In this document: positions 2,705 to 39,673 of the stretch, piece after piece
Layout: every line of letters begins with the position of its first letter
How positions within the stretch are numbered: position 1 is the first letter of the stretch
Assembly (NCBI GenBank): GCA_024693065.1
Contig: JAILLP010000034.1
Span: 1-39,673 of the forward strand
Direction: 5' to 3'
DNA from: Paludibacteraceae bacterium
GTDB lineage: Bacteria; Bacteroidota; Bacteroidia; Bacteroidales; Paludibacteraceae
DNA: 39,673 nucleotides
Translations under genes and position numbers: made by a program
The notes under the pieces: generated by a model
Told to the model about the DNA's origin: nothing
Database searches by the model: none
What the model saw: the letters and a program-made list of their open reading frames with translations, nothing else

Positions 2705-2725
2705 TCTTCTTGTCATATTTTCCCG

Positions 2726-2759: not shown

Positions 2760-2854
2760 GAATAATCCAGGCCATGAAAAAACAACCGTTCATAGCATTC
2801 CTAAATATGAGGAGATAATCACAGGCATCCACTAGTTTTAGTTTAATACCCGAC

Positions 2855-4708: not shown

Positions 4709-4709
4709 A

Positions 4710-20230: not shown

Positions 20231-21124
20231 TCAATCCGCAGAGGCCACCAAACGCAAACCAACATGATAGAACCAACGCCCAGGAGCGCCGCCATCACGG
20301 GATGAGACACGGAAGAACGGTGCGCCCAACGTGCCGCCTCCGCCACGGGAAACGCGCACCTCGCCCGACTTAGGGCCCTTCGGAGAGGACTGTTCGCCTT
20401 CCGCATAGGCGCCATACCAATCCTCACACCACTCGGCGACATTGCCGCTCATATCATAAATGCCCAACTCGTTCGGGCGATAACTTGCCACATTGTAGTA
20501 TAAATCAGAGGCATAGACATCACAACGGGCCACCTCGTCGAGCGTATTGCCACCGCTGTACTTGTAGTCTTTGCTCTCCGCACCCCCACGGGCAGCGAAC
20601 TCCCACTCCGCCTCCGTAGGCAGACGGAATGCCTTGCCCGTCAAGGCATTCAGCTTAGCGATGAACTGTTGGCACGCATCCCAGGAAACGCAAGCCACAG
20701 GGAGGCTATCCCCCTTCATCTGCAGTTGGGAAGGGCAGGAACCCATCACCGCCGTCCAAAGCGCTTGGGTCACCTCCGTCTCGCCGATCCAGTAATCGGG
20801 CAACGAGACCTTGTGCGCTGGTTTCTCCTCCGCTGTCGCCTCACCCGACTGCTCAGGCGTGGCCCCCATCACGAAGGAACCGCCCTTCACCTTCACCATC
20901 GAGAAGACGACATCCTTCACAGTGAAGGATGTGCGTTCGGACAACTTGCCCTCAATTGGCGCAGAACTATTTTCCGCAACCGTATCAACTTTCTCAACCG
21001 TTTTTTCCACATCGGAAGGAGTGGATGTGGACATCTCTCCACTTTCAGATTGTGCCACTTTCTTCGAAGACCCACAAGAGGCCATCGAAAGGGCCAATGC
21101 CATACATATTATTTGTCGACGCAT
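20231..21124 (-). CDS. FGE/SUMF1-fold lipoprotein
   Basis: The protein has 297 residues. The signal ends in a lipobox (LALSMASC, Cys17), so the mature protein is a lipoprotein. A Ser/Thr/Glu-rich linker (18-70) leads to a formylglycine-generating-enzyme-like domain: VKVKGGSFVMGATPEQSGEA, EKPAHKVSLPDYWIGETEVT, PVACVSWDACQQF, FRLPTEAEWEFAARGG, GIYDMSGNVAEWCEDWYGAY and VSRGGGGT. The copper-binding cysteine pair of active FGE is not evident near the C-terminus (FRVSSRDGGAPGRW), so catalysis is doubtful. Many Bacteroidota use the fold as a structural or ligand-binding module; the T9SS ring protein PorK/GldK is one such lipoprotein. It is divergent from the giant T9SS-type gene and convergent with miaA. 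It is not GldK itself, since gldLMN do not follow. Confidence 0.88.
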   Translation of the reverse strand: MRRQIICMALALSMASCGSSKKVAQSESGEMSTSTPSDVEKTVEKVDTVAENSSAPIEGKLSERTSFTVKDVVFSMVKVKGGSFVMGATPEQSGEATAEEKPAHKVSLPDYWIGETEVTQALWTAVMGSCPSQLQMKGDSLPVACVSWDACQQFIAKLNALTGKAFRLPTEAEWEFAARGGAESKDYKYSGGNTLDEVARCDVYASDLYYNVASYRPNELGIYDMSGNVAEWCEDWYGAYAEGEQSSPKGPKSGEVRVSRGGGGTLGAPFFRVSSRDGGAPGRWFYHVGLRLVASAD

Positions 21125-21809: not shown

Positions 21810-24800
21810 ATGAAAAGAATTTTTTCTTTAACTGTAGCATTAATCGCGGCATGTGTTTTTTCATTTGCCGAAGTGCACACCTTTAAAGTAACTTCGTCAG
21901 CAAAAAAGGGTTCAGGAACTCTCAGTGACATTGTATCCCAAATAAACGAGTTACCGGAAACGGACGAGGCGATTGTGACATTCCAGCTGCCATCTTCAGC
22001 CAAGAATACTGTTCACGCAGCGGATACGCAACTCGTGTTTAGCCGCATAGTTTCAATACGGGGTGGAAGTCAAAGAACAACCATTGAAATTAAAGAACTT
22101 GCCGCACCATACGCTATGGTCAGAGAAGTTTCAAACATTGATTTTGTGGGGGATGACTATTCTCAAGCCCTCTATTTTAATGATTCGATTGGAACCGTGT
22201 CAAATTGCTCATTTACTGGTTATGACACAGGTATACGAGCATTAAAAGCCGCAGGAAAAATTCACAAATGTGATTTCAAAGAAATCAAATCCTATGGAAT
22301 CTTCATGTATGGGAACATAAATACTATTGATAGTTGTTCTTTCTCCGACACAAAAATAGCCATTGGCCATTATCCAGCATCATCTGCAACAACAAATTCC
22401 ATAGGAGGGAAAATAACAGCATGCTCATTTACGAATTGCAGCACTCCAATCGAGTTAAGAATGATCGATTTCAAAGAACTCTCCAATTGTACCGCTACGG
22501 ATGGTAATATTGGAATTTATTCCTCAACGACGAAATTCGTCAACAACAAATTCAAGAATGTTAATTTCACTAATGCGACGATAGACAATTTCGGGAAGTC
22601 ACAAATTGAGTCGTTAAGCTTCACAGGCTCTTCCGTGAAAGATCTCGGAAATTTACAAATTGAGAAATTAAGTTTGACCGGCACCTCCGTGGAAAAGATG
22701 TCTAAAGTGACCGTCGAGAACACATTGTCGATGTCAAGTTCTGGCATATCTACCCTCGAACAATCTCGCCTAAAATCCGGAATAACAGGAAATTGTACGG
22801 AATTAAGGTTAGTGAATGACACCATCACAAACGATAACGGATATGGAATACAATTAAGCGGCTCAGTAAACCTTATCGACAACTGCTTAATATACAATTG
22901 CAAGAATGCCATCAACAACACCAGCATAGACTCAATCATATCAACTGAAATAAAAGATTGCACGGGTGATGGCATAAACAATACGGGATATAGTATTAAT
23001 TACATGTCTGATTGTAACATCCACGATTGTCTTTCTGGTATTAATGGAAACAGTTTGGGGAAAATCGAATCCTCCCAAATACATGGGAATAGGGAACATG
23101 GTATAACTTCTGCGAGCACCAACACCATAAAATCCATTGACAATTGTAAAATATATGAGAACGGTGCGACCGGCATAACAAGTCGATATTCGACTGATTT
23201 GATATCGAATTGTGAAATAAAAGACAACCTTATCGGCATCGAAGTAGATTATGGCACAGTTCATCGCATCGACGGTTGTCGTATACTTGACAATAAAAAA
23301 TATGGCATACACGCCCAAACCTCGGTGACAGTGGATTCTATCTCGAATTGCATTTTGTCAGGTTCCGATACAGCAGTCAATATCGGCCGGGCAACTTTAC
23401 TCATAACAGAATGTGTAATAGGAAAAGATGGCGTTGATCCCACATTGAAGGGGAACAAGACAGGCATTTATATGAACAACATGGCAGCCATTACCGTGGA
23501 AAACAGCATCATATCAGGAAACGAGCAATATGGTATTGATATGACAGGGAAACCTAATGTCACACTAAGCAACAATTATATTGGAACGAACGCTTCACTT
23601 GCAGAACTGGGGAATGGTGTCGGAGTATATGTCGACAAAAATGCAAATGAAACGTTGGAAATGCGGAGAAATATCCTTGCCTATAATGAAATTGGATTAT
23701 GGATTCAAGGAACGGAAGCAAATGACCTGAGCAACAACAAATTCATTGGCAACAAGCAATCAGGATATAAACTGGAAATGGCAGTTCAATCATCCTTCGA
23801 AAAAAATTATACATCAAACTTATACCTTAACACACCAGCAGGAGCCAAGGCGATGGATAACTCTTCCTACAGGAATGCAATAGCTACGCCTCCAACCATC
23901 ACAAATGTATCATTGCCAGAGAACGGCTATGTCAACGTTTCTGGTAAACTTGACTATGACAGAAAGGCTCGGATATACGTCTATGCAACAGATGGGAACA
24001 ACCAAAACGCCATCGAGTATATGGGCGCAGATAGCACAGACGCAGATGGCAACTTCGAAGTGAGATTAAGGATTCGAAATGGTGCGCCAAAGGGGTATGC
24101 AGTTTTTGCGAGTGCTGTAAAAGATGAATATATCTCAGAATTCTCCGACTCATACAACTATAATCTGTCAGGAAACTTTTACGTAAAGACAGTAAGCGAG
24201 GGAACGGGAGATGGCTCCAAATGGGAAAATGCGATGGACAGTATACATTTTGCGCAAATCTTGCCGTTGGTAGAAGATGGTACCACCTTCTACGTAGCGG
24301 AAGGTACGTACAAACCAATGTATAATTACAGAATGGAAACGCCATCTTCCAACCCGAAAGAAGCCACATTCTTTGTTCAAAGCAATGTCACAATTAACGG
24401 TGGTTATTCGAAAGATGCAAAAACCGGAGCCGTGGCCGATCCAAGCCAATACAAAACCATTTTCTCGGGTGATATAGAGGGAAACAACAAGATGGTAATT
24501 GACACACTTGTCACAAACACTGACTCTGAAGGGAAATCCAGATATTCCTTTGATTGGTATGGTGGGAATACGGACGATGACGCCGGGGCGATATTCTCAC
24601 TGGCACAGTCAACCGAAGGCATATACTATAACACAAGCTATGGGAGCATCTATCCATCAAGTTCCCCTGTCCAGGACAACGGAAAACAGAAATACTTCAA
24701 TTTAAATGGCGTATACCTGGACGGTGGAGGAATCGGTATAAAATCCATCAATCCGAACATAAACATTACCATAGAGAACACCAAATTCGCCAACTTAGGA

Positions 24801-27800
24801 GGGCAACCAACCTATTTGTTAGAGTCCCCTGCAACAGTAAAGGTGAATAATTGCACGTACAACAAATGCGGTTTCTTTGAAATATTTGGAGCGGACTCCA
24901 TCGTGTTCTCCAACACGAAAATTTCAGAAGGTATGGGATGCATCCTTAGCAAGGCAACTGAAGATAAGGATGTTACCTATATCTTTGAGGATTTTGAGTA
25001 CACAAACAGTTTTAATCGGATAGAGATTAATGGAAGCACCACTACTCAACGCACCTCCTACCTCTCCTTGAAAAACTGCAAAATAGAGAACAATTATGCG
25101 TTATCAGAAATCTTATTTGCGGTTGATTTAGACGTGGTTGCTAAGAATTGCCTATTCAAGGGAAATCAAGTGACACCATTTTATGTGTATGGGAAGCATG
25201 CCCACCTGGAGAATTGCGATTTTGTGGAAAACAAGATGGATGACGATTATTGCATATATTTAGGTGGATCCAGTGGCGGGGAATATCAGAAGCCAATCCT
25301 CTCCAACACGACACTTAAGAATTGTACATTCCAATCGAACGAATGCCAAGTTTTAGGCCAACTGCCATATACTGGAAATTCAAAAGACTCGATCATCAAC
25401 TGTACAATTGAAGACAACAAATTAACGGAGCTTATGTTCTTCGCTAATGACCCAATTGTCTTTGAGAATTCGACAATCAAGAACAACGAGATGGGACACC
25501 GTGGAATCATCAACTTTTCCATGGGATTACACCTAAACAATTCCCTGCTCGAAGGAAACAAAGTAAAGGGAACGGAAGAAGATGTCAACACGTATGCCAT
25601 ATACACACATGAACTGCACGTGAAAAACAGCACCATCAAAGGGAACGAGATGGATTCCATCTTCTTCATGGTGAACCACACGGCGGAATTTACCAACGAC
25701 ACGATAACGGACAACTCCACCAAAATGATGGTATATGGGTTCGACCAAGGATTAGACGTGACAAGATGTTCGTTCAAAGGGAATGAAGGCGGATTGTTCT
25801 ATTGTCAAAACACAGATCAAGAGACGAGAGCACGCATGAGAATCTGGAACTCAGATTTCACAGGCAACAACATCCCGTCTGACGACGACTTGATACATCT
25901 GTACGGAAAAGACAACGACGAAATCATCATCTCAGAGACGAACTTCAACAACAACTCGGCACACACGTTGATGGACATTCATGATGGGAATACAACTATC
26001 TTCAAATGTGATTTCTTCGGCAACAAAATTTCCGGTGAATTCATACACTTGCCAGAGGTAACATCATTGATTGAAGCATCCACTTTCCGTCAGAACGAGT
26101 TGACAGGAGGTAACCTGATATATACGCCTTATGGTGAACTGACACTTTACAACAACACCATTGCCTCCAACAAATTAAAGAACGGGCTCTTCTCGGTTTA
26201 TCCATCCGCGGCGAATGTATATATATATAACAATACGATTATCGCCAACGAAACCACAGCCACCTCATTGGTGGGCGGATCTCTCAGAAACTACGCTTTG
26301 ATCGGAAACATCATAGGAGACGTATTATCACGTGGATTCGACGAGGATAGCATTTGGTACAATGTCTTTGTGAGATCAGAGAGAGCCTCTATCCCAGACG
26401 ATGTATTAGCCAAGAACATATTCACGGATGACATCACCAGTCTCTTCAACGGCACAGTCGACGAATCCACAGGCATCTTCACCCCTGAGTTGAAAATCTA
26501 CGAAGGAAGCACGCCAATTGCGGCATTGAAGAGCGACGCGTTACCGGACGGCACAGTAATCCGCTTCCCGCTCAAGGAGACCGTAGTCTACACCGATCAA
26601 AGGGATATGGATCGTTTGGATTCAACATGTATGGGTGCATTCGAGATTAATTGTACTCCAGACACCACACTCACCAACGACACCATCTATGTGGGAGATA
26701 AATTCCTTGACATAGTATACACCACCGTGGGAAGACACGACATCGTCGAGAAAATCCCAGGAACAGATGGTTGCAGCAGTGTGGCGCTCCATACGCTCTA
26801 CGTCAAACCAGACTCCACCGTAAAGAACTACTACGTCAAGATGGATCGTTGGGGTACAGGCGACGGCTCCACATGGGATAACGCAATGGACAGCGTTGAC
26901 TTCGCCACCTACTTGTCGTTGGCTCCGGACGGGGCTACATTCTATGTGGCGGAGGGTACGTATAAGCCAGTGTATGACTATAATTTAGCAAAAACGAATG
27001 ACCACTCACAACTCACATATTTAATCAATAGTAATATAACCATCAAAGGTGGTTATTCCAACGAAGCCACCGCAAATGATGCCACTAGCGATTACACCAA
27101 GTATCATACCATATTTAGCGGTGATTTGGGAGACGATGACTATTTGAAGGATTCCACATTTATCGATGGTCGAGCTATATTCGTTAATAAAAACACAGAG
27201 GACAACGTCGATACGCTCTTCCGTATGGATTCTAAGAAAATAGCATTTGATGGGATTATGTTCAAATCAGCCAAAGACGTTCTAAATGTCGACAATCAAG
27301 CTGATTCTGTTACATTTTCCAAATGTACATTTGACCAAGATAACATATTGGTGTCGTCGACATCAAGCCAGGATAATATCTCATTGGCATTTTTCGATTC
27401 AAAAATCACTCATTGTCAAAATGAGTATCTAATACCAATCTCATGTAACATCAAGTTTGTCAGAACAGATGTCATAGAGAACACATTTAAATTATTTACA
27501 ATGGAATTAGACCGTGTCGATTTTGAGAATGTAAATATTACTGGGAATGTGGGAGAGCTCATTATTATGACAGTTCATACTAGCCTCAGCTTCAAACATG
27601 TAAAAATAAACGACAACTCATTCTACAAATACGGAGATGTCACTAGACTAAGAGGCGTCATTAATTGTCACGAGGAATCAAAAATTGACAGTTGTCAATT
27701 CTCCCAGAATCACATATTCCATGCAAATGTGTACTGGACAAGCATAAAGGACAGCAAGCATACCGGAATTATCGAATTCTCCGACAAAGGTTATATCAGC

Positions 27801-30800: not shown

Positions 30801-33800
30801 ACATCCAATTCAGACAAGAAGGTATACAACGAATTCCTTTTGGATGGATGTTCATTCTCCAATACTTCATATGGATGCTCATTCTACGCTCCATACGGAA
30901 GAGTACGCATTCAGAACTCCACATTCAACAGCGTCAGGAACCCATTGTCGGTATTCCCTCGTTGGGTGAACGATCCGGACATGCATGTGGAACTCTATAA
31001 CAATACGTTCTCTCTCAATAGAGGCTACACGAACGCAATCGAATTGGCGGACTACGCCAAGACGGTCATGAAGGGTAATGTCTTCAACATGAACTTCAGA
31101 TTCGTAAACGATGACGGCAAAGAAGTCATTCCAGTCGTATCCGACTACAACCTATATGTTTATAACCCAGACACCACAGGCAACATCTGCCAGTTGGGCG
31201 AACACGACCTGTTGGTGGAGCCGAAAGACTTGGTGGGCATTTTCGAAGGTTCCCTCAAGGACGATAAGTTCTTCGCCGTGGATAAGTTAGCTTCCAAAGA
31301 GAACATCACCACCATCATCGAGGTCTTGGAAGACAAGTTGCCGAACGGCTCATTCATCCGCTTGCCTTTGGAGGAGACGGTCGTAACCATCGACGAGACT
31401 GGCAGGGATCGTAACGCCCTGACCTGCATGGGTGCCTACGAGATGGATTGCAGACCTGACACGCTCGTGATGATGGACACCATCCAGATCGGAGGATCAT
31501 TCCAGGGCATCACCTACGACACGGTCGGCAACTACAAGATCTACGGTCCTGATTCAGTCAACGTGATCGGATGCCCGATGACGATTGAACATCATCTCTA
31601 TGTAACGCCAAGCTTCGATGGATCTGGATTCTACGTGAAGACCGAACGTACCGGAAGAGGTACCGGTGCGGATTGGGACAACGCCATGAACGGTGCGGAC
31701 TTCCTCTATGGTCTGCCAATCGTCGAGGATGGCGCCACATTCTATGTCGCAGAAGGTTCCTATGCGATGGACAAGCTGTCGGGTGCCACTTCGGTAACCA
31801 CAGAGAACTCAGTGACGATCATCGGTGGATTCAAGAAGAATGCCAAGAAGGATGACGAGAAGAACGCGGCATACGTGACCCGATTCTACGCCGACTCCAT
31901 ATTCAACCTGAACATCGAAGGTTGGTCTGCATCACCGGTTGGTCTATACGACGTGCGCATGTCTAGCATCCAATACAATGTCAAAGGACAAAGGGAAGTT
32001 GTGGTTGACAGCTGTTCGTTCGACACCTTCGACATCGCTATCAACATGGATTCCACGAAGACATTGCTCGTCAATGCGACAAGCTTCGATGCTAAAGGAC
32101 GAAGCGCAGTGGGAATTCTTGCGGATTATCTATCCTCCGTCTCTGTGGAGAACTCCACATTCACGGGCATACTCTCCAACGAGGAGAACGCAGGTTACGC
32201 TATCCACAGCAAGAACACACTCGGTGATGTGGTCATCAAGAACACGACGTTCGCTGACAACAACACCGCGACCCCAATCGCGATCGATCACCTCTCCGGC
32301 AAATCATATTTGTACAATAACACCATCGCAGGCAATAACAAGGAGGAATGCACCCTCAGTCTGGGCGAAGCAGTCATGCGTGGAAATATCTTCACGGGCA
32401 ACGCTTCTTCCAAGCTGTCCGCAAACTCCACGGTGGACCATGCGTACAACGTATACCCATCAACAGCAGACTTCGCATCCGACTTGGATGTTAAACTGCC
32501 GATTGAACAATTGCCATTATATTTGGATGGAACATATGACGCCAACACTGGCCTCTTCACTGCCAACCTGAAGGATAACGGAGGTTTCGTCAAGACAGTC
32601 GCTCTGATGAAAGACTCCTTCCCTGACCATAGCTTGGCACGCTTCCCTATCGAGAACACAACCGTAAAACTTGATGCTAGAGGCGTGGCCCGTCTGGATC
32701 TCTCCTGCTACGGAGCATACGAGTTGTTCGACGGCGTTCGCGACACCGTTTCCATAGCCATCTACGACACCGTTTGTCTCGGGACAAACTACGAGAAGCA
32801 TGGCTGGAACGTGGAGACCTCTCAGTTGGAGGCCGATGCGACCCACTTCGATACGGTATTCGCCAAGGGCGTGATCTCAACCGATACGCTCTACACATTG
32901 GAATTGAAGGTGGTTCCATTCCAAACTCTCCGTTTGGATAGCGTGGCGGTTTCTCCGACGAAATGCCACGGCAGCGGCAGCGGAGAAATCTATTTCGCGA
33001 CAAGCTGCCACATGGTGGGTGCCATGTCTGTCACCCTCACGGGCGAAGGCGAAGTGGGCACCATCTTGAGCCAGTCATACCCATTGACGGAGGAAAAGAT
33101 AATCAGCGACCTCAAGATCGGAACCTACACGATGACGTTCGCTCCGATATCCCAATGCGTCAACTCGAACATACAAGATGTCGTCCTCGAAGTGAAAGAC
33201 CGCGAGTCTCTCCACACCGCCAATGCGGCCGACACGACACTCTACACTTCTTGCGCCAACTCGCCTTCCGCAGAGTTGACCATCCCGATGGACGGATTCC
33301 ACCCATCGATGAAGATATACTTTGACGGCGAGCTCATATCGAGCGAAGCCAACAACGCAAACGCATATGTCGACTATAAGGACGATGCGGCATTCACCGC
33401 GAAAGGTGAGGTTATACTCTCCGCAATCGCAGTCGGAGAACACGACGTCAAGGCGGAGGATGACTGCGGAAACGCCTTCGACATCAAGCATTTCACAGTG
33501 GACGTGCCTGAGAGCGACGCCATAGAGATGCAACTGGTCGACTATACAACCGACTCCCTGAAGTGCGGACTCGACTTCGCGTTCGCAAACATCAAGGTGA
33601 AGTCTGGCGTTGCGACGACCTTTACCCTGAAGTCCGACAAAGGTTACGAGGTGAATACCACATTGACTTCCAGCTGTGATTCCACATTCTCGTTCAACGA
33701 TTTGCCGGCCGGTGATTACCAAGCAACGTTCAAGAAATACGATCCAGCTTGCTCGGATTCCGTATTCGCATCGTTCTCCATCTACTCTCCTGAGCCATTG

Positions 33801-36800
33801 TCGACATCGTTGACCAGCAACGGTGCGGCTTGTGCCGAGGGTGCAGTGACGGTGGACGCTAAGGGCGGCCGAGGCAAATACATCTATCACTGGACCGATC
33901 CTAGAGGCGAGCAGTTCGACAGCACGTCCAACCATCTCAACGACGTCAGCGCAGGAAACTACATCTGCGTGGTCGAGGATTCCACAGGATGTCTCTCCCA
34001 CCCTGACACATTGTCGATTATTCCTAATGTGGATCAACTCTCCGAGCTGAAAGTGGATAGCGTATACACCAAAAACATCACTTGCTTCGACAAGAACAAC
34101 GGAACCATCGGAGTCCTCTTCTCTACGGACAACACTCAACAGTCCGTCGCTTGCGTGGTAACGAACACCAAGACCAAGGAAGAGACTAAGGCCGCTGGAA
34201 CCTACGCCGCATTGAACGGCGAACTCAAGATTGAGACCCTGGCCGCAGGATCTTACTCATACGAGGTGTATTACGGAACAGAGAGCTGCCGCTTGGACAC
34301 GAACAGCTTCAAGGGCGAGTTCACGATCTCAGCCAAGGAGGTTCAATTTGAATTGGCGAAAGTGGAAATCAGTCAGGAACAAACCTGTATTTCCAATCCT
34401 AACGGTTTGATTGTCAGCAAGGCGAAAGGTTGGGAGAACGACTATAACGCGTTCCTGATCACATCACTGGACGGCAAGACCAGGAACGGGCAAGACACAA
34501 TTAGACCTGTTGGAGAAGGCGATGTGACTGAACTCCAAGCTGCACTTCTGAGAGGAGGTCCTCACTACTTCATCAACGTGAAGGATGCCTGCGGAAGCGA
34601 GAAAAACACTGACACAATCACGCTCCCAGTTCTCGAGCCATTGGCTCTGTCCATCGACACTGTAACGGATTCAGTAACCTGCGCTCGTGCAACCGACGCA
34701 CTGATTAGATTCAACGTCGAGGGAGGTGTCAAGAACTACCACAAGGCATTCGTGAACGAGAAAGAGTTCGACGGAACAGGTACGATCACATACGATAACA
34801 TCGGCAAGGGTGAGTACTACGTTTACTATAAATCCGTAGATCCTCAATGTAACGATAGCGTGGGCGAATATGCACGAATCGCAGGTCCTGACACACTGGC
34901 CATCCAATACACGCTGACGGGTAACTGCGAAGGCTCGAAACTGATTCCGGAAGTATCCGGCGAGTCCGCACCTTACACATACACTTGGAGCGACGGCACA
35001 GAGGAGATAAACGGCACCAGCGAATTCCCATTCCAGACAGAGGAGGGCAAGACCTACTCTCTGACCGTATCCGATGCGCACGCTTGCGACCGCTACACCA
35101 AGAGCTTCACTGTGCCTTCAGCACAAGAGTTGCCTTCCATCACCCAAAAGGTATATGGCGAGTCTGAGAAATGCCACAACGCGAAGAACGGTCTCATGGT
35201 AATCAAACCGAAACTCTCTTCCGAGTTGGATTTCGCGATCACGGCAACCATCGCTTATGGCATGATCGATTCACAAGACACCATCTACACGGAAATCGTG
35301 CTTAACCCTGACGGTTCATTCATCACGCCAGAAAACCTTGCTCCAGGCAAGTACTTCGCAATCACACGACTCGGTTCCATGGATTGCGACATGGGCGTCG
35401 ATCCTATCCGCAACGAGGTGACCGTGGATTCTCTGCAAGAGTTGAGGATAGCATCTGAATTCGAGACCAAGCCGATGACCTGTCTCATCCCGAACGGAAA
35501 ATCCAAATTCTTGGTGGACGGTTGGACTTACACTCACACAGCCAACATCTACATCAACGACCCTACCACCAGAACGTACAAGAGCAACGTCAAGCCTGAT
35601 AGCTATTATCCAGGATATGTAGGCGACTTCAACGTAGACTCCTTGCGTGGTGGATCATACACCTTGATTGTTAAAGACAAATGTAACAACTCGGATACCG
35701 CAGACTTCAATGTGGATCAATACATCCCGAGCGTCAAGATAGACCCATCGTCTATTGTCGATGCAACTTGTCTCAAGGAGCCAAACGGAAAACTCACTTT
35801 CGAAGTGTATGGTTGGACAAACCAACACCAGGTGAACTTCAACAATGGCACGGAGAACGTCTATCCTAAACAAAGGGATGGATCCATCGTGGTGGACACC
35901 GTGGACGGTCAGCCTAGGGCAACCATCTCCATGTTCCAATTACCTAGCGGTTTGTGGACTGCGAAAGTCATCAACGAATGCGGCGACAAACTGGACGACA
36001 AACAGGAAGTCAAGAGCATCGATCCATACAAGATGGAGTTGATCGCTGACGAATCCAAGCTTGTGCTCGACTGTCCATACGACGCCGACGGTAAGATAAC
36101 CCTGAAGGTGTCCGGAGGATACTCCGATGCGACATTCTCAGGATTCGCGACGACAAAGGTGACTTACATGGGCCTCACGGGTGATACGAAGGACTCCACG
36201 TTCTTGGTTCCTGACACCTCGTTCTCTTTGGTCGCTGTATTCGATTCACTCGACATGATAATTAACATCGATACGACATTCAAGAAAAAATCCCAGGATA
36301 CAATCAAGGTGGATTCGATCGTCATCCGATATGACACAATCTTGGTGTTCGACACCATCGTTGCGACGGTCGAGCCTTATGACACGACAATCCACGTCGA
36401 CACCACCTTCATGTACAACTCGCAGGATACTTTCAAGGTCGACGCAATCGTCTTCCTCTACGATACTATCTATTCGAGCGATACCATCATTCCACAGAAG
36501 ATGGATGAGGAAGGAAATCTGGTATTTGACACCATCATCCGCATCGATTCGGTGGTTGTGACGGAAAAAGTGCCAATATACGGAAAGATGGATTCTCTGT
36601 CCACCTCACCAATAAGCTTCACCAACTTCTCTCCGGATCCGGCAGGAGCCATAACAGGCCAATATAAATACCTTGATCTGGAAGCAGGCACCTATCGCTT
36701 CACGTACAAGAGCAACCTTGAGGGATGTACCGACGTCACCCATTACGACACGGAGGTGAAGAAGCCAGCTCCTGTACAGTTGCTCAGAGAGGTGATGCCA

Positions 36801-39443
36801 ATCAGTTGCTCCTCCAGCAAGGACGGTGTGATATCATTGGCGCCTCGTAGGGGCGGCAAATCCTACTCGTACCTCTCCGCACACGATTCCACGGATAAAT
36901 ACGACACGAACCGTCTCTATAAACATGAAACCATCGACGGTAAAGACACCATCGTGGAATACAAGGAAGGTGATGTGGCATTAAATCACAAAATCGACCA
37001 ACTGTATGACACGACTGACATCAAGACGATTTCTTGGCTCACTTACCGAGACCACGACAGTAAGACTTGGTCCGCAATGGGCAACATCGAGTTCCCTGAC
37101 AGCACGGACTACATGGAGGAGGTATACTACAAGGGCAAAGACACCATCAAGACCCCTGTCTACTCGAACACCCACTTGGAGAGCTTCTGGCACGACAGAT
37201 TGGGCACTTACTTCGAGTCTAACGTGGTGACGATCGCCAACTTGGCGCCAGGCTTCTACGACGTGCTGGTGACAGATGCCAAGAAATGTCAGTACCGAGA
37301 CACCTTCGAGGTGAAACTCCCAGAGAAACCGCTGAAGATCGACTCTATAATCTTCAACCCGGACGACGCATTGTGCGATCCTTCGAAACGCCAAATCCTC
37401 GCCTACGTCAGCGGTGGTTGGGGTGAGTACAACTTCACGTTCAGCGACACCGCAAAGGTGAAATCATTGGGTGAGATGAGCGACGGATTCCGAGGCGGAG
37501 AGGCTACCCACTACGACAAGAACACACTCTCAGGATGGGGCGTCAGCCAATTCCTGGATCCAGGTCTATACACAGTGGTCGTGCTCGACGAACAAGGTTG
37601 TATGGTCAAGTCTGACGAGAAGTACTCTGTGAATTCGAAGTTCAGACTCCACATCGACTCGACCCTCACGAAGTGTCCTGAGGACCCTACCGCAGACGTG
37701 AAAGTCGTATTCTCCGAGAAACCGTACGCAAACGAGACATATACCATTGTGGAATATATCTCATCCTGCAGGAACGACACATTGGACGACTGCCGCGAGT
37801 ACAAGATGGATACCCTCTCCAAGGAAATCAAACCTGAAAACGGAGAGTTCACCATCGCATTGGGATCTTTGAAGATGAAGTCTAAGACACACGGAATCTT
37901 CGTCTATGAGAACAACAGTAAACATTGCGGAACATACGTGCAAGGAACGGTAATGGACACTATTCCTATCTTCAAGTCATCAAGGAAGAGTGTAGAGCCT
38001 GCTACTTGCAACGGTTTGAACAATGGTAAGATTGAGCTCTACGTCAGCGGTGGAACAGAACCATACACCGTCATCCGAAACTCTGAATGGAGAAAGAACG
38101 ATACGCTGGCTCTCTTCACCAAACTGAAGTTGCAGGATACGACATTCAAATTAAGTTTGTTGGATCCTTCAGACACCACGAAAGCTCCGGTGGACACTTT
38201 CATCACGAACCATTACCTCACGCTGGACAACATGCCTGCCGACACCTTCTTCTTCACGGTTGTCGACGAAAAGGGTTGCAAGAGCGTGATGGGTGACACC
38301 GCATCCTACGACGAGAAGATCATCGTGAAACAACCAGATACACTGAAGGCTTCCTTCGACGCTTCCACCGCCTGCCAGGAACCTAGTGTGACAAAGGGTG
38401 GTAACGTGTTCTTCAAGGATGTGAAGGGTGGAACAGCTCCTTACATATTCAGTTTGTCTCATATCCTAGGAGGAAAGGAAATCGAAGCATTCGACAATTG
38501 CGATGCGATCAAAGCAGTGGATAATGGTGTTTCCAGCTCCTTGTTCAAAATGAAGGTGACGGATGCTCATGGATGCGTCGTGGAGGGCGAGACCAAATTC
38601 AGGGACGACAACCTACAGGTCGACACATTCGACTTCTGGGTGACTTCCTGGTACGACTACGGCGACGTGGTCGCTCTCATCGACGTCTGCAGCCCGGAAC
38701 AAACATTCGACAGCGTGTCGTACGTCATCACAAACACGAGGAACAACCGCCCAGACTCCACTGTCAAAATGCTGGACAAGAGAATGTACATCTACGACCT
38801 GGACGGCAACCCGACACAAAGGGATCGGCTTTACCAAGCCAAGGACACGAAGAAGGAAGTGCCTAACTCCTTCTTCAGGAAGAACTTCAAACTCAGAAGC
38901 GACATATCCGAAGTCCAGGCAAGACACCTCAACTTCTTCAAGGTCGAGGACAACTCGATCGACCTGAGGAATGAGAAGAGCATGAAGGAGTTCCTCTCCC
39001 AGCACTGCATCAACATGAACGCGTTCTTCCTGGGATGCGAGTATCGGCTCGAGAAGAATTACACCTCCGCGATGATCAACCCGAACAACCCGCAGATGGA
39101 CTCCATCGGACAGAAGTTCCAGATCATCAGCCTGGAGGGATCCCCGAACCCGTTCGCGGATAACGTCACCATCACCGTCAGGTTCACCGAGAAGATGGCA
39201 GCCGACCTGTACATCTACCGCGTCGACGGTACGATGATAAACAAGAACCCGATCAAGATCGACCCGAACGACGGCAGCCATTGGTCCGTCATCTCCGGCG
39301 AACATGTCTTCAAACGCGATTTCTTGACCTCCGAACTGTTCAGCGACAACATCGACTTCGACTACATCATCGTGTTCGTGACAACCAGCCGCGACCAGAG
39401 ATCCACGATCTTGATCCATAGTCCGAAGATTCTAACGGAATAA
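21810..39443 (+). CDS. giant secreted T9SS-type surface protein with beta-helix and SprB-like repeats
   Basis: The protein has 5877 residues in one unbroken frame. Order: signal peptide (MKRIFSLTVALIAACVFSFA); an N-terminal right-handed beta-helix (about 25-789) full of short NCxF/GI coils; five 'choice-of-anchor Q' beta-helix modules starting at about residues 790, 1674, 2371, 2789 and 3274, each opening with (F/Y)YVK, a Gly/Asp-rich stretch and WxNAM, and closing with a D-Q-R-G-like turn then C-x-GA(F/Y)E; about 17 SprB-like beta-sandwich repeats (about 3709-5600), typified by TCNGLNNGKIELYVSGGTEP; and a C-terminal domain (5774-5877) beginning SLEGSPNPFADNVTITV, similar to the T9SS type A sorting domain. 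Linkers between several modules have the DTxxxGxxF...GCDS pattern common in T9SS substrates. It is probably exported, cell-anchored and adhesive, like SprB. The next gene is a TANFOR protein, a known neighbour of such giants. Base composition shifts sharply inside the gene. Confidence 0.88.
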   Translation: MKRIFSLTVALIAACVFSFAEVHTFKVTSSAKKGSGTLSDIVSQINELPETDEAIVTFQLPSSAKNTVHAADTQLVFSRIVSIRGGSQRTTIEIKELAAPYAMVREVSNIDFVGDDYSQALYFNDSIGTVSNCSFTGYDTGIRALKAAGKIHKCDFKEIKSYGIFMYGNINTIDSCSFSDTKIAIGHYPASSATTNSIGGKITACSFTNCSTPIELRMIDFKELSNCTATDGNIGIYSSTTKFVNNKFKNVNFTNATIDNFGKSQIESLSFTGSSVKDLGNLQIEKLSLTGTSVEKMSKVTVENTLSMSSSGISTLEQSRLKSGITGNCTELRLVNDTITNDNGYGIQLSGSVNLIDNCLIYNCKNAINNTSIDSIISTEIKDCTGDGINNTGYSINYMSDCNIHDCLSGINGNSLGKIESSQIHGNREHGITSASTNTIKSIDNCKIYENGATGITSRYSTDLISNCEIKDNLIGIEVDYGTVHRIDGCRILDNKKYGIHAQTSVTVDSISNCILSGSDTAVNIGRATLLITECVIGKDGVDPTLKGNKTGIYMNNMAAITVENSIISGNEQYGIDMTGKPNVTLSNNYIGTNASLAELGNGVGVYVDKNANETLEMRRNILAYNEIGLWIQGTEANDLSNNKFIGNKQSGYKLEMAVQSSFEKNYTSNLYLNTPAGAKAMDNSSYRNAIATPPTITNVSLPENGYVNVSGKLDYDRKARIYVYATDGNNQNAIEYMGADSTDADGNFEVRLRIRNGAPKGYAVFASAVKDEYISEFSDSYNYNLSGNFYVKTVSEGTGDGSKWENAMDSIHFAQILPLVEDGTTFYVAEGTYKPMYNYRMETPSSNPKEATFFVQSNVTINGGYSKDAKTGAVADPSQYKTIFSGDIEGNNKMVIDTLVTNTDSEGKSRYSFDWYGGNTDDDAGAIFSLAQSTEGIYYNTSYGSIYPSSSPVQDNGKQKYFNLNGVYLDGGGIGIKSINPNINITIENTKFANLGGQPTYLLESPATVKVNNCTYNKCGFFEIFGADSIVFSNTKISEGMGCILSKATEDKDVTYIFEDFEYTNSFNRIEINGSTTTQRTSYLSLKNCKIENNYALSEILFAVDLDVVAKNCLFKGNQVTPFYVYGKHAHLENCDFVENKMDDDYCIYLGGSSGGEYQKPILSNTTLKNCTFQSNECQVLGQLPYTGNSKDSIINCTIEDNKLTELMFFANDPIVFENSTIKNNEMGHRGIINFSMGLHLNNSLLEGNKVKGTEEDVNTYAIYTHELHVKNSTIKGNEMDSIFFMVNHTAEFTNDTITDNSTKMMVYGFDQGLDVTRCSFKGNEGGLFYCQNTDQETRARMRIWNSDFTGNNIPSDDDLIHLYGKDNDEIIISETNFNNNSAHTLMDIHDGNTTIFKCDFFGNKISGEFIHLPEVTSLIEASTFRQNELTGGNLIYTPYGELTLYNNTIASNKLKNGLFSVYPSAANVYIYNNTIIANETTATSLVGGSLRNYALIGNIIGDVLSRGFDEDSIWYNVFVRSERASIPDDVLAKNIFTDDITSLFNGTVDESTGIFTPELKIYEGSTPIAALKSDALPDGTVIRFPLKETVVYTDQRDMDRLDSTCMGAFEINCTPDTTLTNDTIYVGDKFLDIVYTTVGRHDIVEKIPGTDGCSSVALHTLYVKPDSTVKNYYVKMDRWGTGDGSTWDNAMDSVDFATYLSLAPDGATFYVAEGTYKPVYDYNLAKTNDHSQLTYLINSNITIKGGYSNEATANDATSDYTKYHTIFSGDLGDDDYLKDSTFIDGRAIFVNKNTEDNVDTLFRMDSKKIAFDGIMFKSAKDVLNVDNQADSVTFSKCTFDQDNILVSSTSSQDNISLAFFDSKITHCQNEYLIPISCNIKFVRTDVIENTFKLFTMELDRVDFENVNITGNVGELIIMTVHTSLSFKHVKINDNSFYKYGDVTRLRGVINCHEESKIDSCQFSQNHIFHANVYWTSIKDSKHTGIIEFSDKGYISNSTFDGNEGGAAIWNNANDTIRIERTTFKNNKNVDLISEYQTGAYYQVTYDRNPHTSVNKCVFTNNSNCKIAELYYNNSISLTNSTIYDNKTTDTLFTLTNSNIHIENNTIIGNEANKLLSSNQKSVVKMYNNTITGNTLNGDYVMNIDSSSILQGNILLGNKMTKDGVLETIKLEDTKNIVVENNIIPLFSTNDGNGCLSIPSEKNIVSAYYTDYLATLSCEEDFSGVKNRNEELFDLMAGTYDPTTGIFTPELKTGEDFTPVVMLKSDRLPDGTSIRFPLTETVVTTDQRGETRLDPTCMGAYEIKCSAVKSTVTDTVTIGDPYSFNGNDLSTLTAKVGVHTFTDTIKLESGCDSIVTLALAVRPEKKDGGYYVKVDGTGDGSDWLNAMSPTDFATYLPLVYDDDTFHVAAGTYHCDVEDPLYGLTYIINKSVTIIGGYPDTVTTIGTPSVPEAYTTKLSADTWDNDNMYFYTNEYLPTNGHFGDNEPTLIHIMGQPHVSLFGITFSGVNNTEDGAISLKEGAALAMDRCVVTKNLSSAIYAKDADIKVTNSEFSLNFSCVGSVFNVTNTKLDVNASTIHENFSHDTICKNGGAKGAVAYLDQSSAVFVNNTIVKNRAFEGAVFVSQSSELDLTNNTIAGNFIEPKSTHTGSVFTFTDESSKMKLFGNMIVANGKSSMEGNATITSSDYNIFSSDFTTAKGEHDMAMKNTDVPYILDGEEYYGNDDIYLPTTRDNGGYTPTVALFQSLFDGGAVLSIPAEARAVDFDQRGYLRKDTSCVGAFEFPTYVDYYVKTRSHGDGSGKDWDNAMGDTTFARYFSIVPKDATFHIAAGTYHPMFDWTGKISNSSGVAYTTSRPINVIGAYPPNAKEGDVPDATKYATILSADLTEDDVYTPSSEDYINWDVKGLNNNASRVMDLQMKQSGSCHLYGLTMKGNYPMFKGSSAALSLYSANNSVKASFYLDSCSFVKTYVAIYSGADTLCLKSCRFDTILYADVCQTSNSDKKVYNEFLLDGCSFSNTSYGCSFYAPYGRVRIQNSTFNSVRNPLSVFPRWVNDPDMHVELYNNTFSLNRGYTNAIELADYAKTVMKGNVFNMNFRFVNDDGKEVIPVVSDYNLYVYNPDTTGNICQLGEHDLLVEPKDLVGIFEGSLKDDKFFAVDKLASKENITTIIEVLEDKLPNGSFIRLPLEETVVTIDETGRDRNALTCMGAYEMDCRPDTLVMMDTIQIGGSFQGITYDTVGNYKIYGPDSVNVIGCPMTIEHHLYVTPSFDGSGFYVKTERTGRGTGADWDNAMNGADFLYGLPIVEDGATFYVAEGSYAMDKLSGATSVTTENSVTIIGGFKKNAKKDDEKNAAYVTRFYADSIFNLNIEGWSASPVGLYDVRMSSIQYNVKGQREVVVDSCSFDTFDIAINMDSTKTLLVNATSFDAKGRSAVGILADYLSSVSVENSTFTGILSNEENAGYAIHSKNTLGDVVIKNTTFADNNTATPIAIDHLSGKSYLYNNTIAGNNKEECTLSLGEAVMRGNIFTGNASSKLSANSTVDHAYNVYPSTADFASDLDVKLPIEQLPLYLDGTYDANTGLFTANLKDNGGFVKTVALMKDSFPDHSLARFPIENTTVKLDARGVARLDLSCYGAYELFDGVRDTVSIAIYDTVCLGTNYEKHGWNVETSQLEADATHFDTVFAKGVISTDTLYTLELKVVPFQTLRLDSVAVSPTKCHGSGSGEIYFATSCHMVGAMSVTLTGEGEVGTILSQSYPLTEEKIISDLKIGTYTMTFAPISQCVNSNIQDVVLEVKDRESLHTANAADTTLYTSCANSPSAELTIPMDGFHPSMKIYFDGELISSEANNANAYVDYKDDAAFTAKGEVILSAIAVGEHDVKAEDDCGNAFDIKHFTVDVPESDAIEMQLVDYTTDSLKCGLDFAFANIKVKSGVATTFTLKSDKGYEVNTTLTSSCDSTFSFNDLPAGDYQATFKKYDPACSDSVFASFSIYSPEPLSTSLTSNGAACAEGAVTVDAKGGRGKYIYHWTDPRGEQFDSTSNHLNDVSAGNYICVVEDSTGCLSHPDTLSIIPNVDQLSELKVDSVYTKNITCFDKNNGTIGVLFSTDNTQQSVACVVTNTKTKEETKAAGTYAALNGELKIETLAAGSYSYEVYYGTESCRLDTNSFKGEFTISAKEVQFELAKVEISQEQTCISNPNGLIVSKAKGWENDYNAFLITSLDGKTRNGQDTIRPVGEGDVTELQAALLRGGPHYFINVKDACGSEKNTDTITLPVLEPLALSIDTVTDSVTCARATDALIRFNVEGGVKNYHKAFVNEKEFDGTGTITYDNIGKGEYYVYYKSVDPQCNDSVGEYARIAGPDTLAIQYTLTGNCEGSKLIPEVSGESAPYTYTWSDGTEEINGTSEFPFQTEEGKTYSLTVSDAHACDRYTKSFTVPSAQELPSITQKVYGESEKCHNAKNGLMVIKPKLSSELDFAITATIAYGMIDSQDTIYTEIVLNPDGSFITPENLAPGKYFAITRLGSMDCDMGVDPIRNEVTVDSLQELRIASEFETKPMTCLIPNGKSKFLVDGWTYTHTANIYINDPTTRTYKSNVKPDSYYPGYVGDFNVDSLRGGSYTLIVKDKCNNSDTADFNVDQYIPSVKIDPSSIVDATCLKEPNGKLTFEVYGWTNQHQVNFNNGTENVYPKQRDGSIVVDTVDGQPRATISMFQLPSGLWTAKVINECGDKLDDKQEVKSIDPYKMELIADESKLVLDCPYDADGKITLKVSGGYSDATFSGFATTKVTYMGLTGDTKDSTFLVPDTSFSLVAVFDSLDMIINIDTTFKKKSQDTIKVDSIVIRYDTILVFDTIVATVEPYDTTIHVDTTFMYNSQDTFKVDAIVFLYDTIYSSDTIIPQKMDEEGNLVFDTIIRIDSVVVTEKVPIYGKMDSLSTSPISFTNFSPDPAGAITGQYKYLDLEAGTYRFTYKSNLEGCTDVTHYDTEVKKPAPVQLLREVMPISCSSSKDGVISLAPRRGGKSYSYLSAHDSTDKYDTNRLYKHETIDGKDTIVEYKEGDVALNHKIDQLYDTTDIKTISWLTYRDHDSKTWSAMGNIEFPDSTDYMEEVYYKGKDTIKTPVYSNTHLESFWHDRLGTYFESNVVTIANLAPGFYDVLVTDAKKCQYRDTFEVKLPEKPLKIDSIIFNPDDALCDPSKRQILAYVSGGWGEYNFTFSDTAKVKSLGEMSDGFRGGEATHYDKNTLSGWGVSQFLDPGLYTVVVLDEQGCMVKSDEKYSVNSKFRLHIDSTLTKCPEDPTADVKVVFSEKPYANETYTIVEYISSCRNDTLDDCREYKMDTLSKEIKPENGEFTIALGSLKMKSKTHGIFVYENNSKHCGTYVQGTVMDTIPIFKSSRKSVEPATCNGLNNGKIELYVSGGTEPYTVIRNSEWRKNDTLALFTKLKLQDTTFKLSLLDPSDTTKAPVDTFITNHYLTLDNMPADTFFFTVVDEKGCKSVMGDTASYDEKIIVKQPDTLKASFDASTACQEPSVTKGGNVFFKDVKGGTAPYIFSLSHILGGKEIEAFDNCDAIKAVDNGVSSSLFKMKVTDAHGCVVEGETKFRDDNLQVDTFDFWVTSWYDYGDVVALIDVCSPEQTFDSVSYVITNTRNNRPDSTVKMLDKRMYIYDLDGNPTQRDRLYQAKDTKKEVPNSFFRKNFKLRSDISEVQARHLNFFKVEDNSIDLRNEKSMKEFLSQHCINMNAFFLGCEYRLEKNYTSAMINPNNPQMDSIGQKFQIISLEGSPNPFADNVTITVRFTEKMAADLYIYRVDGTMINKNPIKIDPNDGSHWSVISGEHVFKRDFLTSELFSDNIDFDYIIVFVTTSRDQRSTILIHSPKILTE
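21867..24176 (+). repeat. N-terminal right-handed beta-helix region of the giant protein
   Basis: Residues about 20-789. Dozens of coils of about 20-25 residues repeat the form 'I-x-x-C-x-I-x-x-N-x-x-G-I', for example IDNCKIYENGATGITSRYS and ISNCEIKDNLIGIEVDYG. This is a NosD/pectate-lyase-like parallel helix without visible catalytic residues. It is AT-rich: the line 22561-22620 has 22 G+C of 60 by hand count. Confidence 0.75.
24177..26654 (+). repeat. choice-of-anchor Q beta-helix module 1
   Basis: Residues about 790-1615. Opens FYVKTVSEGTGDGSKWENAM and TTFYVAEGTYKPMYNY, contains NVTINGGYSKDAKTG and FSGDIEG, and closes TVVYTDQRDMDRLDSTCMGA before FEINC. It is the longest module. A DT-x-x-x-G linker to module 2 follows. 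Confidence 0.8.
26218..26229. repeat. (TA)6 dinucleotide tract within the giant gene
   Basis: Six TA units in a row encode part of VYIYNNT. A slip of one unit would shift the frame of the rest of the protein (about 4400 residues). Confidence 0.9.
26829..28727 (+). repeat. choice-of-anchor Q beta-helix module 2
   Basis: Residues about 1674-2306. Opens YYVKMDRWGTGDGSTWDNAM and ATFYVAEGTYKPVYDY, and closes TVVTTDQRGETRLDPTCMGA before YEIKC. Its edges are GC-richer and nearly repeat module 1 at the DNA level. The core (about 26970-28510) is strikingly AT-rich: 15 G+C of 60 in 27481-27540. Confidence 0.8.
28920..30161 (+). repeat. choice-of-anchor Q beta-helix module 3
   Basis: Residues about 2371-2784. 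Opens YYVKVDGTGDGSDWLNAM and DTFHVAAGTYHCDVED, and closes RAVDFDQRGYLRKDTSCVGA before FEFP. It is the shortest of the first four modules, with composition like the neighbouring genes (30 G+C of 60 in 29461-29520). It joins module 4 with almost no linker. Confidence 0.8.
30174..31451 (+). repeat. choice-of-anchor Q beta-helix module 4
   Basis: Residues about 2789-3214. Opens YYVKTRSHGDGSGKDWDNAM and ATFHIAAGTYHPMFDW, and closes TVVTIDETGRDRNALTCMGA before YEMDC. The usual D-Q-R-G turn is changed to D-E-T-G. Confidence 0.8.
31629..32729 (+). repeat. choice-of-anchor Q beta-helix module 5
   Basis: Residues about 3274-3640. Opens FYVKTERTGRGTGADWDNAM and ATFYVAEGSYAMDK, and closes TTVKLDARGVARLDLSCYGA before YELF. 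It is the last beta-helix module before the SprB-like repeats. The linker after it (DTVSIAIYDTVCLGTNYEKH) begins the change of architecture. Confidence 0.8.
32934..38616 (+). repeat. array of about 17 SprB-like beta-sandwich repeats
   Basis: Residues about 3709-5602. Each unit of roughly 70-150 residues has a Cys near its start followed by x-N/D-G-x-I-x-x-x-V-x-G-G, then an aromatic strand and an L-x-x-G-x-Y-x-V-x-V-x-D-x-x-x-C ending. Clear examples are AACAEGAVTVDAKGGRGKYI, ATCLKEPNGKLTFEVYGW and ATCNGLNNGKIELYVSGG. This is the repeat type of the gliding adhesin SprB. The units are diverged, and I counted 17 by eye. Confidence 0.75.
36270..36527 (+). repeat. tandem 43-residue DT-rich duplication inside the SprB-like array
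   Basis: Two copies, 129 bases apart (36270-36398 and 36399-36527; residues 4821-4906). The first 30 residues agree at 20 positions: DTTFKKKSQDTIKVDSIVIR against DTTFMYNSQDTFKVDAIVFL, then YDTI...DTI in both. The block sits in the middle of one SprB-like unit and looks like a recent insertion and duplication. Confidence 0.8.
39129..39440 (+). other. C-terminal T9SS-type sorting domain of the giant protein
   Basis: Residues 5774-5877. Begins SLEGSPNPFADNVTITVRF, matching the (x)PNPxxxxxxI start of T9SS type A C-terminal signals, then DLYIYRVDGTMINKN (the V-x-D-x-x-G-x strand). It ends FDYIIVFVTTSRDQRSTILI before HSPKILTE. The last strand is not the textbook Y-x-x-K-x-x-K, so the domain is a divergent form. 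Confidence 0.65.
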
Positions 39444-39525: not shown

Positions 39526-39673
39526 ATGTTGAAACGTTGGTTCACCCTTTTTCTGATCGCACTGTTGCCTACTTTGGCCTCGGCGCAGAGCGGAACCGTT
39601 TACCCGATCGATTTGTCCGTGATGATGACTCCTCCTTACGGCACCTGCCTCAAGGAGTACGTCGGGTCTAACA
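39526..39673 (+). CDS. TANFOR-domain secreted protein, N-terminal part
   Basis: The gene runs off the right edge; 49 residues are seen. A signal peptide (MLKRWFTLFLIALLPTLASA) is followed by QSGTVYPIDLSVMMTPPYGT and CLKEYV. The pattern 'Y-P-I-x-L-x-V-x-x-x-P-P-Y-x-x-x-L-x-x-Y' is the N-terminus of the Bacteroidota TANFOR domain, first named from Tannerella forsythia. Such proteins are typically next to giant T9SS substrates and PorP/SprF genes. The ATG (39526) follows AGGAAT, a passable ribosome-binding site. The 82-bp gap and same strand suggest co-transcription with the giant gene. The role is unknown; a periplasmic or surface partner of the giant protein is inferred. Confidence 0.72.
   Translation, partial: MLKRWFTLFLIALLPTLASAQSGTVYPIDLSVMMTPPYGTCLKEYVGSN

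What the first reader, a model, noticed from the sequence alone, without database searches (positions are those of the whole stretch)
21810..39443. A 5877-residue T9SS surface protein joins five anchor-Q beta-helix modules to an SprB-like repeat array
The frame is open over 17.6 kb. Two architectures usually found in separate proteins are fused: YVK...WxNAM...GA(F/Y)E beta-helix modules and about 17 SprB-type repeats, with a sorting domain at the end. SprB itself is a mobile gliding adhesin. Here a beta-helix head could form a very long rigid fibre or a ligand-binding tip. I do not know of a described protein with this exact layout.
Basis: partly seen in the sequence, partly recalled or inferred. 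Interest (0 to 1): 0.78.

Follow-up and report, generated by a model that had tools for sequence, protein, structure and literature searches.

The report
Giant surface fibre beside toxin genes
A gut bacterium encodes an enormous protein, probably a long surface fibre with a swappable tip, directly in front of a gene that resembles toxins used against other bacteria, so the fibre may help pick the target.

Summary
One intact 5877-codon frame (21810-39443) encodes an N-terminal beta-helix, five YVK...W.NAM...GA(F/Y)E modules, an SprB-like array (11-12 recognisable repeats, not 17) and a sorting domain below database cut-offs. Profile comparison places that domain with type A, not SprB's type B. 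The layout recurs: 10 of 11 related giants from the same bacterial family have head motifs, as do two more MAGs.

The window is a whole contig that stops 49 codons into a gene with a TANFOR-like N-terminus, a published class of Bacteroidetes polymorphic toxins whose genes are known to lie near SprB-repeat T9SS substrates. Such a gene follows the giant directly, or behind one barrel-like gene, in 11 of 11 relatives that could be read.

The giant has an internal step near residue 2265-2300: before it third-position GC is 0.46, after it 0.67, and similarity to the closest orthologue jumps there too.

Best reading: a T9SS-exported fibre with an exchangeable tip on a conserved stalk, working with a polymorphic toxin. 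Display, binding and coupling are inferred. New variant of a known kind.

The parts
21810..39443 (+). giant T9SS surface protein, 5877 aa
21810..21869 (+). signal peptide, residues 1-20 (boundary judged by eye)
   Evidence: sequence; no signal-peptide program was run
21870..24149 (+). N-terminal beta-helix without a YVK head, residues ~21-780
   Evidence: Pfam Beta_helix best stretch 442-591, NosD best stretch 545-653
24177..26645 (+). beta-helix module A, residues 790-1612
   Evidence: head and tail positions
26829..28718 (+). beta-helix module B, residues 1674-2303; end of the variable, low-GC3 part
28602..28604 (+). best single change point of third-position GC (residue 2265): 0.461 before, 0.671 after
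   Evidence: likelihood gain 126.8; in 50-codon blocks 125.8 against at most 23.7 in 200 block permutations
28920..30155 (+). beta-helix module C, residues 2371-2782; start of the conserved part
30174..31442 (+). beta-helix module D, residues 2789-3211 (modelled as residues 2766-3213)
   Evidence: pTM 0.78; Foldseek matches to beta-helix carbohydrate enzymes
31629..32723 (+). beta-helix module E, residues 3274-3638
32955..38456 (+). SprB-like repeat array, residues ~3716-5549
   Evidence: PF13573; own profile
36657..39440 (+). conserved C-terminal base, residues ~4950-5877
   Evidence: alignment A1 of residues 4880-5877, 30-63% identity to five relatives
39117..39440 (+). divergent type A-like T9SS sorting domain, residues ~5770-5877
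39526..39673 (+). first 49 codons of a TANFOR-like polymorphic-toxin gene, cut by the contig end

Best explanation
The protein is a Sec- and T9SS-exported cell-surface fibre whose C-terminus is the cell-proximal base and whose N-terminus is the distal tip. Residues ~3716-5877 (SprB-like Ig repeats plus type A-like CTD) form the conserved stalk and anchor; modules C-E extend it. The N-terminal helix and modules A-B (residues 1 to ~2300) are an exchangeable tip that binds a target surface or glycan. The fibre belongs to a TANFOR-type polymorphic toxin locus: it positions the toxin encoded downstream or holds the neighbouring cell in contact, in the manner of a contact-dependent inhibition adhesin. 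Shown here: frame, domains, recurring gene order, a variable and a conserved part in both the giant and the toxin-like genes. Inferred: surface display, orientation, tip binding, and any functional coupling to the toxin.
For: Domains. CTD: profile of 12 giant CTDs against 10 type A CTDs, probability 91.3, P 9.6e-7, 83 columns; against 11 type B CTDs probability 2.0; type A against type B 32.5. Export: SprA_N 536 bits in the genome. Gene order in 11 of 11 relatives readable past the giant: a TANFOR-like gene directly after it in 4 (L065, L066, L067; L055) and right behind a barrel-like gene in 7 (L056, L057, L058, L059, L070; L052, L054). L064 ends after 8 fitting codons and L053 is cut inside the giant. 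A locus of another family (Salinivirgaceae, L072) has barrel, ~1000-aa, ~700-aa, a 2985-aa SprB giant without heads, then a TANFOR-like gene. TANFOR: 4 of 10 N-termini hit TIGR02542 at E 4.8e-10 to 2.7e-4, all below cut-off; the C6 copy, 99% identical to the window fragment, matches one of those four, G019, at E 4.8e-12. Polymorphic pattern: the C3 toxin-like protein against its G015 counterpart is 63-100% identical in the first 20 windows of 50 columns and 13-58% in the last 9, while giant, barrel, ~1000-aa and ~700-aa neighbours are 94.8, 97.3, 90.4 and 97.1%. Tip: GC3 change point at residue 2265; identity to L049 18-39% per 100 residues over 1701-2200, 44-90% over 2301-3400; residues 1-1386 of L049 are 71% identical to those of L054, while their other matches are 20-29%. 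In print: SprB repeats enriched near TANFOR genes, P 2.14E-87 (PMC7073777).
Against: TIGR02542 found nothing in the own genome at E<=1e-3, 6 of 10 N-termini gave no hit even at E<=10, and three toxin-like relatives had no NCBIfam hit at E<=0.1. That contig C6 continues C17 is inferred from gene content. Barrel-next and toxin-next gene orders differ between relatives. Fourfold-site GC shows the step less sharply than GC3: 0.36-0.58 before, 0.44-0.88 after, neighbours 0.31-0.84. The first 100 residues after module A's tail (1601-1700) are 55% identical to L049. The CTD model is poor (pLDDT 46-75 there) and Foldseek gives only generic Ig/Fn3 matches. No expression, secretion or binding data; adjacency does not prove joint function.
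Confidence: 0.5

Rival explanations
1. It is a plain adhesin for plant fibre, mucus or other cells. It is exported by PorV and fixed to the surface by PorU as an ordinary type A substrate, and only shares a neighbourhood with toxin genes.
For: CTD profile fits type A. Anchor-Q giants are common in the genus, e.g. own-genome frames of 3284, 3302 and 4820 aa in which the SprB model gave no hit at E<=1e-3. The module D model resembles beta-helix polysaccharide lyases and pectin methylesterases. Pectin-lyase-fold cargo is common in the P. intermedia T9SS (PMC11969387, passages read).
Against: A TANFOR-like gene next to or one gene behind the giant in 11 of 11 readable relatives, and the enrichment in print.
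Confidence: 0.3
2. It is a mobile gliding adhesin like SprB, carried along a GldJ track.
For: The genome has a near-full-length GldJ homologue (392 bits, cut-off 458) followed by murF, GldD (216.5 bits, cut-off 120) and GldB (184.6 bits, cut-off 190). In oral bacteria GldJ was found in only 3 genera (PMC11705866, passages read).
Against: CTD is type A-like, not type B; the genome has a true type B protein elsewhere (TIGR04131 97.8 bits). No PorP/SprF adjoins the giant on this contig or lies on C6. None of the 7 complete PorP/SprF proteins read (from 8 loci, of 17 matches) ends in the twin-cysteine tail (motif from PMC12635249).
Confidence: 0.12
3. It is a surface enzyme: the beta-helix modules are polysaccharide lyases or esterases on a stalk.
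For: Best Foldseek matches for module D are PL6 chondroitinase B (E 7.9e-4) and pectin methylesterase (E 1e-3).
Against: Query-normalised TM-scores of the 50 listed matches are 0.16-0.40 and identities 8-14%; no catalytic family over cut-off in Pfam or NCBIfam. Catalytic residues were not checked.
Confidence: 0.06

Closest known systems
SprB-repeat T9SS substrates encoded beside TANFOR polymorphic toxins (Jana, Salomon and Bosis 2020, PMC7073777; outline, passages, section 9 read)
   Same: SprB repeats, a T9SS sorting domain, and a TANFOR-like gene next door
   Different: five anchor-Q modules and a further beta-helix at the N-terminus; CTD and TANFOR domain below the models' cut-offs; barrel-like, ~1000-aa and ~700-aa genes travel with these loci, not listed in that paper's Table 1
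the Salinivirgaceae MAG locus L072
   Same: same five gene families, SprB giant directly before the TANFOR-like gene
   Different: its 2985-aa giant has 19 SprB-like repeats and no YVK head or GA(F/Y)E tail
SprB of Flavobacterium johnsoniae (PMC12635249, passages and part of Discussion read)
   Same: giant, T9SS-exported, SprB repeats
   Different: type A-like instead of type B CTD; no SprF partner next door; N-terminal beta-helix modules
choice-of-anchor Q beta-helix proteins (NF041518) of Bacteroidales
   Same: anchor-Q module with YVK...W.NAM head
   Different: most frames listed were not checked for SprB repeats one by one; here five modules sit on an SprB stalk
CdiA-type contact-dependent inhibition systems (recalled, not tested)
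   Same: long surface fibre, variable binding part, variable toxin C-terminus, candidate immunity gene nearby
   Different: fibre and toxin are separate proteins; T9SS instead of two-partner secretion; no homology claimed

Membership tests
SprB gliding adhesin | SprB repeats (PF13573) over cut-off | tested here: met
   91.9 bits against 28
SprB gliding adhesin | type B sorting domain (TIGR04131) | tested here: not met
   no TIGR04131 hit at E<=1; hhalign to type B probability 2.0
SprB gliding adhesin | adjacent SprF/PorP carrier gene | tested here: not met
   17 PorP/SprF matches in the genome; on this contig only a fragment at 15-137, none on C6; the gene after 39526 is cut by the contig end
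SprB gliding adhesin | moves on the cell surface | not testable with these tools
   needs live cells
T9SS type A cargo | TIGR04183 or PF18962 over cut-off | tested here: not met
   18.5 of 23 bits; 13 of 27; of 6 giant CTDs scanned alone 2 hit TIGR04183 below cut-off and 4 did not
T9SS type A cargo | CTD homologous to type A CTDs over its length | tested here: met
   probability 91.3, P 9.6e-7 over 83 columns; the type A set was picked by regular expression from fetched loci
T9SS type A cargo | T9SS translocon in the genome | tested here: met
   SprA_N 536 bits; PorV and PorU were not searched
choice-of-anchor Q proteins | NF041518 over cut-off | tested here: met
   48.6 bits against 25
TANFOR polymorphic toxin locus | TANFOR domain (TIGR02542) over cut-off in the neighbouring gene | tested here: inconclusive
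   own genome none at E<=1e-3; 4 of 10 relatives' N-termini hit below cut-off, 6 none; homology chain; the 49-codon window fragment itself was not scanned
TANFOR polymorphic toxin locus | conserved N-part and variable C-part in the toxin gene | tested here: met
   shown for the second locus of the same genome against G015; for the window's own locus only a GC3 step 0.72 to 0.36 at residue 312 of the C6 part
TANFOR polymorphic toxin locus | C-terminal domain is toxic and a neighbour gives immunity | not tested
   the 546-aa WG-repeat gene is a candidate by position only

The most novel reading that the evidence does not exclude
A T9SS-based contact-dependent antagonism apparatus of gut Bacteroidales: a modular giant fibre (exchangeable beta-helix tip on an SprB/type A base), a dedicated ~575-aa outer-membrane barrel, two conserved large partners and a TANFOR toxin with an exchangeable C-terminus act as one delivery machine. 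Target recognition and killing power evolve by recombination in two neighbouring genes. In species with GldJ, GldD and GldB the fibre might even move on the cell surface.
Probability: 0.25. Interest if true: 0.87.

Novelty: new variant of a known kind. Interest (0 to 1): 0.62.

Why it matters
How TANFOR toxins leave the cell and choose targets was open when the class was described; its authors could only speculate that T9SS exports them (PMC7073777). This locus family offers a concrete candidate for the recognition fibre, a sharp place to look for its binding tip (residues 1 to ~2300), and a recurring set of partner genes, so the question becomes testable. It also shows an SprB-repeat giant ending in a type A-like instead of a type B signal.

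Tried and rejected
SprB orthologue: rejected because the CTD is not type B and no SprF adjoins. DNA-level tandem array: TRF found 0 rows; pairwise identities among modules A-E are 25-41% (10 of 10 pairs). Solved relatives: no PDB sequence hit at E<=0.1 for residues 1-3900 or 3801-5877. Folding the last 440 residues gave only generic Ig/Fn3 matches, so the CTD claim rests on profiles. TANFOR by direct model search in the own genome: nothing. Barrel-like proteins: no NCBIfam family at E<=0.1 for 3 or at E<=0.01 for C6's, no Pfam at E<=0.1 for 3; 'barrel' rests on sequence character (signal peptide, C-terminal phenylalanine), not on a test. C6's ~1100-aa and ~700-aa proteins gave only weak, uninformative hits. 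FGE-sulfatase gene 20231-21124 as GldK or GldJ: rejected, 89 of 350 and 61 of 458 bits. A weak hit of one giant CTD to the PorU C-terminus (E 0.0018; 1 of 6 CTDs) is not used.

Limits: one search used only residues 3600-5877, only the last ~1000, and the two folds cover residues 2766-3213 and 5438-5877 of 5877. Home-made profiles come from the same family. Head and tail counts use regular expressions. One search stopped with an error in its last line; the earlier output is used and the missing part was redone.

Full report
What is in the window. The frame 21810-39443 is open for 5877 codons and behaves as coding DNA (codon-position differences 1226/961/2279 against an orthologue). Pfam finds beta-helix repeats in residues 1-3900 and SprB repeats in 3801-5877; NCBIfam finds choice-of-anchor Q three times. 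Five head-to-tail modules were located by motif, preceded by a beta-helix region without a head. The sorting domain is below the cut-off of both database models.

What kind of sorting domain. Twelve giant CTDs, ten type A and eleven type B CTDs were collected from the fetched loci by regular expression and compared as profiles. The giants match type A over 83 columns (probability 91.3, P 9.6e-7) and not type B (probability 2.0); type A against type B gives 32.5. Scanned alone, 2 of 6 giant CTDs hit TIGR04183, both below cut-off, and 4 did not. The same genome carries a textbook type B protein (TIGR04131 97.8 bits), so both kinds coexist.

Is the fusion unique? No. With residues 3600-5877 as query, 10 of 61 genomes have matches at E<=1e-10: own, 5 of 15 other same-genus genomes, 4 of 21 same-family genomes of other genera, 0 of 24 from other families of the order. 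Eleven related giants were read from these, one of them the paralogue C3 of the own genome; 10 of 11 have at least one YVK head by motif and 11 of 11 have five or more SprB-like repeats at E<1, though L055 has only one below 1e-2. The one without a head, L059, still matches module E at 30% identity. Two further giants, in RUG12804 (L067) and in a Prevotellaceae MAG (L070), have heads and SprB motifs. The named scan gave 14 loci: five are contigs already seen (UBA1181, SIG116, RGIG9379, RGIG9480, RUG12969), two are L067 and L070, and seven match only part of the query; of those, L071, L073 and L074 show SprB motifs and no heads.

Neighbourhood. Upstream lie ordinary genes (dnaA, amidase, lptD, glycogen synthase, phosphorylase, IPP transferase, an FGE-sulfatase gene). 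The window is a whole contig, C17. It ends 49 codons into a gene beginning at 39526. Its last 148 bases recur at 99% identity on contig C6, and the contigs of L064, L065 and L067 also stop 112-293 bases after the giant, inside the same kind of gene. The simplest reading is that near-identical copies of this gene break assemblies. C6 carries, in order, the C-terminal part of such a gene, a 546-aa WG-repeat gene, a 582-aa barrel-like gene, a 1119-aa and a 709-aa gene and a second copy of the gene's start. That C6 continues C17 is an inference.

The downstream gene. Of the relatives readable past the giant, 4 of 11 have a TANFOR-like gene next (L065, L066, L067; L055) and 7 of 11 have it right behind a barrel-like gene (L056, L057, L058, L059, L070; L052 and L054). 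L064 ends after 8 fitting codons and L053 inside the giant. The family shares a PP(Y/F/H) N-terminal domain, and all 5 frames that reach the central region have HEL.HG; G020's is cut before it. Four of ten N-terminal stretches match the TANFOR model at E 4.8e-10 to 2.7e-4, all below cut-off; six do not. TANFOR proteins are polymorphic toxins often encoded near SprB-repeat T9SS substrates (PMC7073777). In the second locus of this genome (C3) the toxin-like protein keeps 63-100% identity per 50-column window to its G015 counterpart for 20 windows and then falls to 13-58% for 9, while the four neighbours stay at 90-97%. That is the polymorphic-toxin pattern.

A wider module. The barrel-like family occurs in 47 of 296 class genomes, 35 of 166 genera, at E<=1e-20. 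In 20 neighbourhoods chosen from the 47, mostly the best hits, 16 of 20 also hold at least one of the TANFOR-like, ~1000-aa or ~700-aa families (9, 9 and 11 of 20). As a control, 18 long loci not chosen through the barrel (11 of the own genome, 7) gave 1 of 18 with any of them. That one, L072 from a Salinivirgaceae MAG, has the whole set in a row: barrel, ~1000-aa, ~700-aa, a 2985-aa SprB giant with 19 repeats and no heads, then a TANFOR-like gene. So the SprB giant belongs to the module beyond this family, and the beta-helix tip looks like an addition.

A variable tip. Third-position GC in the giant has its best change point at residue 2265 (0.461 before, 0.671 after; likelihood gain 126.8; in blocks 125.8 against at most 23.7 in 200 block permutations). 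The 15 neighbouring genes run from 0.57 to 0.81. Modules C-E are beta-helices too and lie at 0.64-0.74 in the windows from 2401 to 3600, so the fold does not explain it. At fourfold sites the contrast is weaker (0.36-0.58 before, 0.44-0.88 after; neighbours 0.31-0.84). Identity to L049 changes at the same place: 18-39% per 100 residues for 1701-2200, 55% for 2201-2300, 44-90% for 2301-3400; the window 1601-1700, a linker, is also 55%. Three other giants have their change points just before a module tail (L049 at 1894, tail 1973; L051 at 1209, tail 1265; L054 at 1729, tail 1759), with gains of 30, 30 and 74; L056's point has a gain of 17, within the range of W's permutations. L049's first 1386 residues are 71% identical to those of L054, whose base is different. 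In the toxin gene on C6 GC3 is 0.72 up to residue 312 and 0.36 after. For L050, L051 and L055 the identity step is blurred.

Structure. Module D modelled with mean pLDDT 70.8 and pTM 0.78; its best Foldseek matches are beta-helix carbohydrate enzymes at E 8e-4 and weaker. The last 440 residues modelled with pLDDT 71.9 and pTM 0.57. A fibre length of roughly 150 nm is my estimate from 0.48 nm per beta-helix coil and about 4 nm per Ig-like domain; it was not computed.

Gliding. GldJ (392 bits of 458), GldD (over cut-off) and GldB (just under) are in the genome, and GldJ, GldD and GldB matches are in 12 of 12 sampled same-genus genomes, GldJ only in part in one. They are also in most of the 8 other-family genomes sampled (GldD and GldB 7 of 8), so they do not single out this species. 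Mobility is conceivable. Against it, the CTD is not type B and none of the 7 complete PorP/SprF proteins read has the twin-cysteine tail.

Verdict. A real, recurrent giant with a modular fusion, best placed as the T9SS surface fibre of a TANFOR-type toxin locus. Joint function is inferred. The layout did not show up in the paper searches, which cover open-licence PMC papers only.

Noticed in passing
own genome contig C3:63884-65476 (L116:13885-15477): A near-full-length GldJ homologue followed by murF in a gut Bacteroidales genome, with GldD (C19) and GldB (C34) elsewhere.
   Followed up: partly
window 15-137 (-) and the ends of contigs C13, C25, C26, C14, C31: PorP/SprF gene fragments lie at several contig ends, as if near-identical copies broke the assembly.
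   Followed up: no
L089-L108, L072: A barrel-like family (frames of about 540-830 aa) with ~1000-aa and ~700-aa partners recurs beside TANFOR-like genes across Bacteroidia; no NCBIfam or Pfam family hit the barrels tested.
   Followed up: partly
own genome C1 and C4 (L113, L114, L115): Further giant anchor-Q frames of 3284-4820 aa in the same genome, without an SprB hit at E<=1e-3.
   Followed up: no
L016 (own C1:218000-237000): A 2381-aa giant with Ig/PKD-like repeats and an 1850-aa RHS-like protein (both judged by eye) beside a PorP/SprF gene: possibly another T9SS-linked set.
   Followed up: no
window 17385-18950 (-): A 521-codon antisense frame inside the phosphorylase gene; most likely a by-product of codon usage.
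   Followed up: no
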